This document shows, piece by piece, positions 9,784 to 12,412 of a DNA stretch of 39,468 bases. Position 1 is the stretch's first letter, and every line of letters starts with the position of its first letter. This DNA is from Okeania hirsuta. Its GTDB lineage: Bacteria > Cyanobacteriota > Cyanobacteriia > Cyanobacteriales > Microcoleaceae. Below the pieces are notes generated by a model. That model saw nothing but the letters and a program-made list of their open reading frames with translations. It searched no databases and was not told the DNA's origin. The stretch is from contig NZ_RCBY01000052.1 of NCBI RefSeq assembly GCF_003838195.1, forward strand, positions 1 to 39,468, given 5' to 3'. Position numbers and translations under genes: made by a program.

Positions 9784-10230
9784 CTATTTATTCGCATTCT
9801 GCTTATTTCTATGACTAGCAATACGAGCTGCTCCACTATCCACAGGACCACCAGCAATAGGAATCACCTGATATTTGCGCTCTTGTTCTAAATTTTTTAG
9901 TTTAGTATAATCAACCCAGTGAATACAATTTACAGGACAAGTGTCGATCGCTTCTTGGATTAATTCTTCAGAGTCCCCATCTTGCTGAAAAACCCGCGCT
10001 CGCCCATGATCTGGTTCAAGATAAAAAGTATTATGGGCAACATGAGCGCAGTGTTTACAACCGATACAGGTAATTTCATCAACGTAAACTCCTTTTTGTC
10101 GCAACATTCCACCAAGTTCGGGTTCAAAACCTGAACGTTCGGGAGTATTCCGTAACACTCCACCAAGTTCGGGTTCAAAACCTGAACGTTCTGTGTTAGA
10201 CTCAGGAGATGATGAAGAAAAATCTAGCAT
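9784..10230 (-). CDS. 4Fe-4S ferredoxin-family protein with duplicated N-terminal motif
   Basis: A 148-residue electron carrier-like protein. The ferredoxin core has C55, C58 and C61 (CIGCKHC) plus C98 and C102 (CPVNC), enough for one 4Fe-4S cluster. The N-terminus repeats ERSGFEPELGG twice (residues about 14-24 and 31-41), a feature I recall from cyanobacterial homologues. The tail is basic and disordered. In other cyanobacteria this gene follows DUF2997 and ycf35 genes; here iscB lies between ycf35 and it. Only 23 bp separate the iscB stop from its ATG, with GAGG as ribosome-binding site, so it probably depends on transcription passing through iscB. Electron partner unknown. Confidence 0.88.
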   Translation of the reverse strand: MLDFSSSSPESNTERSGFEPELGGVLRNTPERSGFEPELGGMLRQKGVYVDEITCIGCKHCAHVAHNTFYLEPDHGRARVFQQDGDSEELIQEAIDTCPVNCIHWVDYTKLKNLEQERKYQVIPIAGGPVDSGAARIASHRNKQNANK

Positions 10231-10253
10231 TAGACCTCTTAGAAAAAATATAC

Positions 10254-11534
10254 TTAAAACGAGTAATTGTATCCATCTCGTCTATGGACAGGTTGGATAT
10301 GGTTTCGAGATACAGACAAGATTTTATCCCCCTGTCGGATATCAAAATTGCCTTTGCTTCTGACAGTTTTAATCCTGACTCCTTTTAAACCAGCATTTTT
10401 GCCTTTGACCACATTGATAATATCCCCTGTTTTCCAGCCTGGTACAGGTTTTTTTGCTTTGTAACCAATTCTTGGAAAACCGTATTTATCCATTTGAACC
10501 ATTTGTCGGCAACCATGTCCCATTGCTGTGACGACTAGGGGTTGATTCGTAAGTATTGTTAACTTTTCAACTTCACCAATACAAGCAGCATCTATCCAGT
10601 GTTCTTTTGGTAAATTCAACCGACGACGGTTATATTTAGTACCAGCACCACTACCAGTAATCACAGGCAGACCTGTTGCTGTTAAAGTTTCAAAGATTTG
10701 AGTGCGAGTTGAGTTAACCGCAGCAGCATCTTTTAATGGGGTTTTGGCAACCTTTAGAACATGAGCTAGTATAGATGGTTTATTTTCCAGAAATTCCCGA
10801 ATATCCATCGCGCCCTTATTTTGGTTGCATTGATGACAAGCTATAGCTAAATTAGATACCCTATTACTACCACCCTTTGACCGTGGAACTATATGTTCAA
10901 TTTCTAAAGGCGTATCTGTTGCTCCACAATAAGCACACGATCGACCCCATTTCTCTAATAGATACTCCCGGACATCATAACCAAATAGTTCCCCTTTTTG
11001 ATATTCAACTCCTGAAATTTCTGGGTTCTGTATTTTCTGGGTGTCAAACTTGACCAATTCTATAGCTAAACTACTTACCGGGCTTAGTTTACACAGTCTA
11101 TTCACCCAAGTTTCTACAGTCAAAACCCGATGCCTTAAACTTGGTGGCAGCCATCCTTTTTTTCGTTTGCGGTTGAAAAATCTGCACTTACGGTAGCGAG
11201 TTTTTCGGTAACGACGACCTCGGCGAAGAGTTCGTCGTCGCTCTAAAGCATTTTTGATTTGCTGGCCACGATGGACTAAAACCATTGCAAAGATAACTTC
11301 TTCACTTTGAGTTACTAAAGCAAAGCCTGTTTGTTTGGAACCAGGGTCAATTTTTAATTGCAAGCCTTGAAAATCAAGAGCTACCAATTTCTTCAGAATT
11401 ATTGTGAAAGGGTAGCGCTTAAAAACTTTGGCTTTGCCTGCTTTTAACAATGACCTCGCCATGGCTGGTTTGCATGGTGCTAAGGGTTTTTTCTTGGCGT
11501 CAAGTACGAACACATAATTGGTTGAATTGGACAT
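10254..11534 (-). CDS. iscB: IscB RNA-guided HNH/RuvC nuclease
   Basis: A 426-residue transposon-associated nuclease of the family ancestral to Cas9, which uses an omegaRNA to cut DNA. Domain order from the chosen ATG: PLMP domain (about 1-55, here PLAPCKPAMAR rather than PLMP), RuvC-I (KIDPGSKQTG, D63), Arg-rich bridge helix (about 97-128), RuvC-II (AIELVKFD, E159), HNH (C200/C203, H214 in EIEHIVPRSKGG, C233/C236), RuvC-III (H312, D315 in EHWIDAACIG) and a C-terminal target-adjacent-motif-interacting region. All catalytic residues are present, so it looks functional. The frame is open to 11603, but those 23 codons lie in the omegaRNA. AGGAGG about 10 nt before the ATG at 11534, and the family start MSN..YVFVLD, fix the start. 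No TnpA is nearby. Confidence 0.95.
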   Translation of the reverse strand: MSNSTNYVFVLDAKKKPLAPCKPAMARSLLKAGKAKVFKRYPFTIILKKLVALDFQGLQLKIDPGSKQTGFALVTQSEEVIFAMVLVHRGQQIKNALERRRTLRRGRRYRKTRYRKCRFFNRKRKKGWLPPSLRHRVLTVETWVNRLCKLSPVSSLAIELVKFDTQKIQNPEISGVEYQKGELFGYDVREYLLEKWGRSCAYCGATDTPLEIEHIVPRSKGGSNRVSNLAIACHQCNQNKGAMDIREFLENKPSILAHVLKVAKTPLKDAAAVNSTRTQIFETLTATGLPVITGSGAGTKYNRRRLNLPKEHWIDAACIGEVEKLTILTNQPLVVTAMGHGCRQMVQMDKYGFPRIGYKAKKPVPGWKTGDIINVVKGKNAGLKGVRIKTVRSKGNFDIRQGDKILSVSRNHIQPVHRRDGYNYSF

Positions 11535-11700
11535 TGTTGCGTCCCTCCTACTCTCGTGTAAAGTTGGCCTCGCCCGGTTATTGAAGCTTTTTACGTTCGG
11601 CACACTAGCTTTTCAAATCTCTTTGCCTGTTTAATGCCGAACAATAGAGGTCGGAACTGGCGGAGCATTCCGACGTATTGTGACTAAAATAACGTTTACT
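11535..11700 (-). ncRNA. omegaRNA (HEARO RNA) of IscB
   Basis: The DNA immediately upstream of iscB has the structure expected of HEARO/omegaRNA, read on the minus strand. Hairpin 1: an ACAATA/TATTGT outer helix (11641-11646 with 11676-11681) and a GTCGGAA/TTCCGAC inner helix (11650-11656 with 11668-11674) closing a TGCTCCGCCAG loop. Hairpin 2: an 8-bp perfect stem GTTCGGCA/TGCCGAAC (11595-11602 with 11635-11642); the two outer helices share 2 nt. A conserved-looking 3' part follows, with GGGCGAGGCCAACTTTACAC and ending GGGACGCAACA directly before the ATG. The guide should be at the 5' end, near or beyond 11700. The exact 5' end is not determined. Confidence 0.85.
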
Positions 11701-11715
11701 TGAAGAAAGTGGGCT

Positions 11716-11770
11716 GGACTAACCATTTAAACACAAAATTTGCGTTTTGATTAGATTTGTGGTTAAGTCC
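11716..11770 (-). other. Hairpin overlapping the ycf35 stop, possible guide/boundary region
   Basis: On the minus strand GGACTTAACCA (11760-11770, containing the ycf35 TAA) pairs with TGGTTAGTCC (11716-11725) apart from one bulged base; the loop is A/T-rich. It may be the original ycf35 3' hairpin, the left end of the iscB element, or both. No U-tract follows, so it is not a standard terminator. The omegaRNA guide would be expected around here. Confidence 0.5.
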
Positions 11771-12146
11771 AACGTTGAACAACTAGACGAATAGAGCCAT
11801 CTTTGTTTTTTTGCTGTTCGGTAACTTGAAATCCTTGTTTAGTAGTTTCATTAACTACAGTGCTGTAAGCATAACTCTGAGTCACCATACTTATAAACCG
11901 ATCGACAGACCATGCTTGTTGCCAAAATTGTAGATCCGCTACCAATTCATATTCATTGCCATTCCAAGCAAACCCCAGGTCATACCCATTATTCTGTTCT
12001 ACAACTACTTCAGCAGTGCTAGTTTGTCCACGATAACCACGGACTTCTGTAGGACCAGATTTCCAGTCAATACCTAAATCTGTGAGAGCGGACTGCAAAG
12101 ACTTCAAGTTACGAATTTGAGTTTTGATTTGACTAAAGTGTGACAT
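11763..12146 (-). CDS. ycf35: Ycf35 (DUF1257) protein
   Basis: A 127-residue protein of the DUF1257 family, conserved in cyanobacteria and red-lineage plastids, of unknown function. Diagnostic segments are MSHFSQIKTQIRNLKSLQSA at the start, VRGYRGQTSTAEVVV in the middle and the WSVDRFISMVTQSYAY region near the C-terminus. Length is normal. It is in the same direction as DUF2997 (47 bp upstream) and the ferredoxin gene, the usual cyanobacterial neighbours, which suggests one functional unit, perhaps redox-related. The stop codon is part of the hairpin next to the iscB element. Confidence 0.92.
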   Translation of the reverse strand: MSHFSQIKTQIRNLKSLQSALTDLGIDWKSGPTEVRGYRGQTSTAEVVVEQNNGYDLGFAWNGNEYELVADLQFWQQAWSVDRFISMVTQSYAYSTVVNETTKQGFQVTEQQKNKDGSIRLVVQRWT

Positions 12147-12193: not shown

Positions 12194-12412
12194 TTACCAG
12201 TTGCAAAAAGAAGAAACTTGCGTTGTAGCAGTCTCAGACTGATGCTGCTGTTGAGCAAAGTATTCAGAAGTTGATTCTTGAGTGAGAATAATTCCTAATT
12301 CTTCTTCTATTGCCTTAGTTACTTCTGTACAGGATGTACCGACAATGCCAGTAACTTTTTCCTGTACTCGACCATCTGGATAAATGATGAACTCTAAAGT
12401 TTCCATGTTCAT
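12194..12412 (-). CDS. DUF2997 protein
   Basis: A 72-residue protein beginning with a beta-hairpin-like METLEFIIYPDGRVQEKVTG, then C/T-rich CTEVTKAIEEELG, the pattern of DUF2997. It has a glutamine- and threonine-rich tail ending in CNW. Normally encoded beside ycf35 and a ferredoxin in cyanobacteria, as here; function unknown. It is probably the first gene of the operon, whose promoter would be in 12413-12600. A second in-frame ATG lies two codons downstream of the first. Confidence 0.85.
   Translation of the reverse strand: MNMETLEFIIYPDGRVQEKVTGIVGTSCTEVTKAIEEELGIILTQESTSEYFAQQQHQSETATTQVSSFCNW

What the first reader, a model, noticed from the sequence alone, without database searches (positions are those of the whole stretch)
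10254..11700. Intact IscB nuclease with its omegaRNA inserted inside the DUF2997-ycf35-ferredoxin operon
The sequence shows all RuvC and HNH catalytic residues (D63, E159, H214, H312/D315), the Arg-rich bridge helix, and a structured RNA directly 5' of the gene. IscB is established as an omegaRNA-guided nuclease of IS200/IS605-like elements and relative of the Cas9 ancestor. The element has entered a conserved cyanobacterial gene set in the same orientation, so host transcription probably drives nuclease and omegaRNA, and the ferredoxin is now downstream of the nuclease gene (23 bp). No TnpA is nearby, so it would be mobilised in trans or is domesticated.
Basis: partly seen in the sequence, partly recalled or inferred. 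Interest (0 to 1): 0.9.

Follow-up and report, generated by a model that had tools for sequence, protein, structure and literature searches.

The report
Mobile IscB nuclease inserted in ycf35
A small selfish genetic element that carries an RNA-guided DNA-cutting enzyme, a relative of the ancestor of Cas9, has jumped into the end of a conserved gene of a marine cyanobacterium; it is a well-resolved example of a known kind of mobile element rather than a new kind.

Summary
The finding is real. Window 10254-11534 (-) encodes an intact 426-aa IscB, and Rfam's HEARO (omegaRNA) model hits 11558-11769 (-) at 95 bits (cut-off 83). In 32 of 32 related ycf35-ferredoxin loci examined the site is empty, so this is an insertion. 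Sister copies and empty sites of three of them fix the element at 10237-11767 (1531 bp). It lies 3' of an RGA motif and 5' of a G, with no target duplication, as IS200/IS605-like elements do, and has no transposase of its own. It entered the second-last codon of ycf35. A base absent from this end of the other copies gives ycf35 a new stop codon, and the roughly 100-600 bp that separate ycf35 and ferredoxin in close kin are gone. The presumed guide is the ycf35 3' end. It matches the empty allele exactly in 6 of 29 kin loci, and its last 17 bases occur nowhere else in its own genome. Most likely the nuclease cuts empty alleles and so preserves or drives the element. The protein is under purifying selection across copies. 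The genome also holds copies with a good omegaRNA but no working IscB, so supply in trans is plausible. This is a new member of a known kind; domestication is not supported.

The parts
10237..11767 (-). whole IscB element, 1531 bp, from C(T)TAACC to TTTTTTCTAAGA
   Evidence: ends shared with sister copies at other sites; boundaries fixed by empty sites of three other copies
10254..11534 (-). iscB, 426 aa, RuvC D63/E159/H312/D315 and HNH H214 present
   Evidence: Foldseek's eight best hits are IscB chains
11558..11769 (-). omegaRNA (HEARO); its first two model positions (GA) are host sequence
   Evidence: Rfam RF02033, 95 bits; covariation on 12 copies
11768..11787 (-). presumed guide: last 20 host bases before the element, within the end of ycf35 (exact guide/scaffold border not determined)
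   Evidence: exact match to the empty ycf35 end in 6 of 29 kin loci; no other site in own genome within 2 mismatches of its last 17 bases
11763..11765 (-). ycf35 stop codon TAA, lying inside the element and created by a T absent from the same element end in the 27 other sites counted
10237..10265 (-). right end: short hairpin TACT..AGTA, T run, terminal AAGA
   Evidence: shared by sister copies; hairpin read from the sequence
11763..12146 (-). ycf35 (DUF1257), end changed from QRW-SA-stop of close kin to QRW-T-stop
   Evidence: Pfam PF06868; kin ends
9784..10230 (-). ferredoxin (Fer4_13), start codon 6 bp from the element end
12194..12412 (-). DUF2997 gene upstream of ycf35
   Evidence: Pfam PF11211

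Best explanation
It is a transposase-less, IS200/IS605-like IscB (OMEGA) element of an Okeania-type cyanobacterium. A TnpA acting in trans (inferred) placed it 3' of TGGA in the second-last codon of ycf35, in this lineage only as far as examined. The omegaRNA made across the left junction carries the ycf35 3' end as its guide. IscB loaded with it (inferred) cuts chromosomes or sister alleles whose ycf35 is still empty, and repair from a copy with the element restores or spreads it. On its own copy the target is split, so it is spared. Shown: protein, RNA, empty sites, exact ends, insertion motif, guide-target identity, purifying selection. Inferred: transcription across the junction, cleavage, copying, trans mobilisation.
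For: guided_IscB 461 bits; catalytic residues invariant in 16 aligned IscBs; HEARO 95 bits with 14 of 58 pairs compensated on 12 copies. Empty ycf35-ferredoxin site in 32 of 32 kin loci: no blastn match to the element and no tblastn match to IscB at E <= 1e-3. The same element at unrelated sites in other Okeania genomes, 91-95% identical. Empty counterparts of three other copies show clean insertion. Left flank RGA in 23 of 28 sites (background 0.030 per position in the window) and right flank G in 18 of 19. dN/dS 0.114, 0.125 and 0.134 to the three nearest intact copies. Guide identical in 6 of 29 kin ends.
Against: No transposase could be tied to these ends: a search of the 19 TnpA loci gave only two weak matches that do not reach the tips, and the commonest TnpA element of the genome has other ends. 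Transcription and cleavage are untested. The right flank of this copy is not the expected continuation of ycf35, so this copy has been rearranged. The dN/dS reflects the family; it is not a test of this copy alone. No clear TAM beyond G at +1 emerged.
Confidence: 0.72

Rival explanations
1. The IscB has been domesticated here: kept by the host as a nuclease or regulator co-transcribed with ycf35 and ferredoxin, and no longer mobile.
For: Same strand as its neighbours, no TnpA on the contig, open frame in a family under purifying selection, and the only full-length copy found in the genome.
Against: Absent from 32 of 32 kin loci examined. Purifying selection is equally seen between copies at different sites. 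Sister copies sit at many sites, and shortened and broken copies abound.
Confidence: 0.1
2. The present structure is a hybrid or deletion product: two elements, one at ycf35 TGGA^G and one at a ferredoxin-leader AAGA^GG, recombined and lost the spacer; or a one-ended transposase reaction or short-repeat deletion did the same.
For: The left junction is a TGGA^G site. The right junction reads AAGA^GGTCTAATG, and kin locus L037 has AAGAGGTCTCATG at that place. The spacer of 98-604 bp in nine kin is cut to 6 bp. This concerns how the site arose and is compatible with the main reading.
Against: No allele with two elements was found. Same-genus kin L030, L033 and L034 have ACAAAATG, not AAGAGGTCTA, before the ferredoxin start, so the ancestral leader is uncertain.
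Confidence: 0.5
3. A dead or dying copy: IscB open by chance, the RNA impaired by the extra T in its first stem, no remaining transposase.
For: The extra T puts a bulge in the GACTAACCA/TGGTTAGTC stem that most other copies form; the other IscB copies found in this genome are broken.
Against: HEARO still scores 95.0 bits, above the cut-off and in the range of three intact sister copies (94.7, 95.7, 99.1); the frame is open over 426 codons with dN/dS 0.11-0.13 to the nearest copies.
Confidence: 0.18

Closest known systems
IscB/omegaRNA (OMEGA) elements; HEARO, Rfam RF02033; NCBIfam NF040563
   Same: protein family, domain order, catalytic residues, HEARO RNA directly 5' of the gene, sparse association with TnpA (PMC9755519, section 9 read)
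   Different: nothing fundamental; exact site, guide and insertion motif are new data
IS200/IS605 insertion sequences (peel-and-paste; features recalled)
   Same: sequence-specific insertion 3' of a short motif, no target duplication, terminal motif AAGA like the flank, hairpins near the ends
   Different: no TnpA in the element; the mobilising enzyme is not identified
TnpB gene drive of IS200/IS605 elements (PMC11870625, passages read)
   Same: proposed logic: the guide records the insertion site and empty copies are cut
   Different: TnpB, likely ancestor of Cas12; tested there on plasmids, not tested here
Stand-alone omegaRNAs working with IscB (Altae-Tran 2021 as cited in PMC9581776, passage read; original not held)
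   Same: HEARO RNAs without a neighbouring IscB
   Different: here some sit in compact dispersed elements that keep both transposon ends

Membership tests
IscB (OMEGA nuclease) | match to the curated IscB model | tested here: met
   NF040563 461.4 bits, cut-off 175, positions 1-314 of 314
IscB (OMEGA nuclease) | RuvC and HNH catalytic residues | tested here: met
   D63, E159, H214, H312, D315, invariant in 16 rows; the RuvC-I, -II, -III and HNH motifs align with PDB IscB chains in the printed alignments
IscB (OMEGA nuclease) | IscB fold, including C-terminal TAM-interacting region | tested here: inconclusive
   Foldseek hits 1-8 are all IscB chains (best E 1.2e-23), but the model is mediocre (pLDDT 72, TMq 0.44-0.52); the C-terminal region was not assessed separately
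IscB (OMEGA nuclease) | HEARO/omegaRNA 5' of the gene | tested here: met
   95.0 bits at 11558-11769 (-), 23 bp from the start codon
IscB (OMEGA nuclease) | RNA-guided double-strand cleavage next to a TAM | not testable with these tools
   needs biochemistry; right flanks give G at +1 in 18 of 19 sites
IS200/IS605-like element | insertion at a fixed motif without target duplication | tested here: met
   left flank RGA in 23 of 28 sites while the element's own right end is AAGA in nearly all; empty counterparts of three copies, one of them (L060) in a repeat array
IS200/IS605-like element | subterminal hairpins at both ends | tested here: inconclusive
   left: stem CTAACCA/TGGTTAG, extended by host GA with TC; right: only a 4-5 bp hairpin, seen by eye
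IS200/IS605-like element | own HUH transposase TnpA | tested here: not met
   none on the contig; 19 Y1_Tnp matches elsewhere in the genome
domesticated nuclease gene | conserved position across lineages | tested here: not met
   0 of 32 kin loci examined carry it

The most novel reading that the evidence does not exclude
One intact IscB gene serves a set of IscB-less omegaRNA mini-elements scattered through the same genome. Each mini-element carries its own guide for its own insertion site, so a single nuclease protects and drives many non-autonomous elements in trans. Here the window copy would serve the C686 element (HEARO 100.5 bits, only the last 102 residues of IscB left) and the C323 element (iscB broken, HEARO 89.2 bits). 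In the related single-contig genome G013, 31 of 40 listed HEARO copies have no listed IscB match within 1.5 kb, and the 20 of these that were fetched are dispersed copies of one family, about 376-412 bp long in all but one of those measured.
Probability: 0.3. Interest if true: 0.62.

Novelty: new member of a known kind. Interest (0 to 1): 0.38.

Why it matters
IscB elements seldom carry TnpA (PMC9755519), and how they move and persist is poorly documented. This family gives exact ends, an insertion motif (RGA^G), empty counterparts for this site and three others, and a guide whose target is known in relatives: a ready test of whether IscB drives its element as TnpB does. The mini-elements that keep a full omegaRNA but no nuclease suggest selection on the RNA apart from the protein.

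Tried and rejected
A target-site duplication was considered, because AAGA can stand on both sides. It was rejected: left flanks vary (TAGA, AGGA, TGGA, CAGA, TTGA, GGTA) while the right end is AAGA in nearly all copies, and the L060 empty counterpart has AGGA where the right end reads AAGA. One copy, L169, has AAAA on both sides, which taken alone would look like a duplication.

The TAM NWRRNA of OgeuIscB (recalled, not looked up) does not fit the right flanks by eye; no consensus beyond G at +1 was clear.

Ends of the element against 19 TnpA loci gave only two weak matches (E 0.015 and 0.003), neither reaching the tip of the end. The five-copy 1.98-kb element with TnpA and a TnpB-like ORF (likeness recalled) was examined and has other ends.

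A tblastn of ORFs from the TnpA loci against the IscB loci found no TnpA beside an IscB copy. The ORFs were picked by a crude motif filter that took in some other ORFs and missed some loci, so this is a weak negative.

Promoter scan at chance level; 4 terminator-like sites against 2.1 expected, all on the + strand, so none belongs to this gene set.

Papers: PMC9755519 section 9 read; passages of PMC9755519, PMC9581776, PMC13180657 and PMC11870625 read; other papers were seen as search listings only. Listings for IscB with non-autonomous or omega RNA (12 of 14 shown) held no title on IscB-less omegaRNA mini-elements, and IscB with MITE and transposon gave no paper; open-licence library only.

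Rows dropped: 7 of 35 left ends (L179 and L181, same site as L180; L193, same as L062; L200, looks like the L182 site; L196, L198, L199, ends too diverged) and 2 of 21 right ends (L192 degraded, L193 duplicate) before the counts. In one search, dS could not be computed in 3 of 28 pairs. Of the 57 other genomes with a ycf35 match, 29 loci were examined there; three more (L098, L099, L100) came.

Full report
What is there. The minus strand of 10254-11534 encodes a 426-aa protein (ORF; start ATG 11534 shared with sister copies). It matches NCBIfam guided_IscB at 461 bits against a cut-off of 175, Pfam RRXRR and HNH and IscB chains of the PDB by sequence. A structure model from those 16 rows is mediocre (pLDDT 72), yet its eight best Foldseek hits are all IscB chains, best E 1.2e-23. 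Immediately 5', Rfam's HEARO model matches 11558-11769 (-) at 95.0 bits, gathering score 83; it is the only hit over a gathering score in the window. On 12 copies of this RNA 14 of 58 predicted pairs keep pairing through changes on both sides in at least one copy.

Where it lies. The neighbours are DUF2997, ycf35 (DUF1257) and a ferredoxin, all on the same strand. The genome is held as G000, 8.79 Mb. Its same-genus genomes G002, G001 and G004 match the Okeania records behind L059, L060 and L067 in size and ycf35 position, so the host is taken to be an Okeania-type cyanobacterium; this is an inference. ycf35 was found in 58 of 59 genomes searched, this one included. In 29 kin loci fetched there (L030-L058) blastn finds the ferredoxin near ycf35 in all 29. 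In these and in three more (L098, L099 and L100, the last from same-genus genome G001) neither the element by blastn nor IscB by tblastn matches at E 1e-3: 0 of 32. The insertion is therefore confined to this lineage among the loci examined.

Exact ends. Copies 91-95% identical sit at unrelated sites in Okeania SIO2B3, SIO3B5 and SIO3I5. Empty counterparts of three copies (L001, L060, L061) were found in relatives and aligned across the junction; for L060 these are repeats of an array, so strict orthology is uncertain. They show a clean insertion of CTAACC...TCTAAGA between RGA and G. Over independent sites the left flank ends in RGA in 23 of 28 and in GA in 24 of 28, against a background of 0.030 and 0.056 per position; the right flank starts with G in 18 of 19 (dropped rows are listed under Tried and rejected). 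Because the left motif varies and the right AAGA hardly does, this is not a target duplication: the left motif is host and the right one is element. That is how IS200/IS605 transposases insert (recalled). In the window the element is 11767 to 10237, 1531 bp, after TGGA in ycf35.

What it did to the host genes. In the 20 kin loci whose ycf35 end was printed, the protein ends QRW-SA, QRW-CA or, once, QRW-SS. Here it ends QRW-T and the stop TAA lies inside the element. That stop exists because the element starts CTTAACC, with one T more than the CTAACC-type start of the other copies; without that T the frame would run on for 22 more residues into the RNA gene. Whether this was selected or is chance cannot be told. 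On the other side only GGTCTA remains between element and ferredoxin start, whereas nine close kin have 98-604 bp between TGGA and that start. The right junction AAGA^GG itself looks like a target site, and kin locus L037 carries AAGAGGTCTCATG at that place. A deletion by recombination between two copies, by transposase, or between short repeats would all fit.

Guide and target. In IsrB the scaffold is omegaRNA residues 21-282, so the 20-nt guide is the 5' end (PMC9581776, passages read); for IscB the same is recalled. Effective IscB guides are about 13 nt, with an optimum of 16 nt reported for OgeuIscB (PMC13180657, passages read). Here the bases 5' of the scaffold are the ycf35 3' end, TCTAGTTGTTCAACGTTGGA. 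They match 20 of 20 in 6 of 29 kin loci, each followed by GTGCTTAAAT or GTGCTTGAAT. In its own genome the last 17 bases occur once, with no other place within two mismatches. So the predicted target is the empty ycf35 allele. Cyanobacteria of this group are polyploid (recalled), so cutting empty chromosome copies could fix an insertion; this step is inference.

Activity and family. Codon comparison with the three nearest intact copies gives dN/dS 0.114, 0.125 and 0.134, so the protein has been kept functional through the family's spread. In G000 there are 5 HEARO matches, 3 over the cut-off, but only one full-length IscB was found: C323 is in pieces with a stop inside, and C686 keeps only the last 102 residues. 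None of the 19 Y1 transposase matches lies on this contig, and none could be tied to these ends.

Wider pattern. Four elements of about 350 bp in two relatives (L173, L174, L176, L177) keep both ends but no detectable IscB; 3 of the 4 exceed the HEARO cut-off (99.6, 96.5, 94.5 bits). In the single-contig genome G013, 9 of the 40 HEARO matches listed have a listed IscB match within 1.5 kb. Both lists are cut and not every first-look candidate was scored (45 of 75 for HEARO, 43 of 75 for IscB), so these are not full counts. Twenty of the other 31 were fetched. All twenty belong to one dispersed family: against copy L240, 18 of the other 19 align over 376-412 bp and one over 316 bp, with different bases on either side. 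One of the 20 (L244) keeps a weak IscB C-terminal remnant; the other 19 show none at E 1e-3. Its ends differ from the window family's. Stand-alone omegaRNAs that work with IscB are already reported (PMC9581776, citing Altae-Tran 2021), so the principle is known; dense families of such mini-elements I did not see in the listings.

Verdict. It is a mobile element, not a domesticated gene, as far as the comparison goes. It is a new, unusually well resolved member of a known kind. Interest is moderate, mostly for the empty/filled site pairs, the insertion motif, and the hint that one nuclease could serve several RNA-only elements.

Noticed in passing
window 9784-10230 (-), repeats around 10090-10200: The ferredoxin N-terminus holds a tandem in-frame repeat (ERSGFEPELGG...) coded by a near-palindromic DNA repeat (one search lists one copy as terminator-like); a like repeat is in distant relative L056, so it is probably old.
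   Followed up: partly
L236-L255 (genome G013): Dispersed family of HEARO-bearing elements without a working IscB; against copy L240, 18 of the other 19 fetched align over 376-412 bp.
   Followed up: partly
G006: 41 HEARO matches, while its best IscB match covers only model positions 66-314 of 314: many omegaRNA copies and no full-length IscB seen.
   Followed up: no
L067 3217-4359: In Okeania SIO1I7 an IscB copy is interrupted after DTQKIQ by about 1.1 kb that carries a 203-aa HNH ORF resembling a group II intron maturase end (resemblance recalled, not searched).
   Followed up: no
L171 296-373: A group II intron end (Rfam RF00029) lies about 95 bp 5' of a HEARO element in genome G001.
   Followed up: no
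L179, L180, L181: A short HEARO remnant with much the same flank in three genomes (G002, G000, G004), so some insertions of this family probably predate species splits.
   Followed up: partly
L001 1245-1360: The left flank of the C686 element contains a roughly 110-bp repeat found in many places in Okeania genomes.
   Followed up: no
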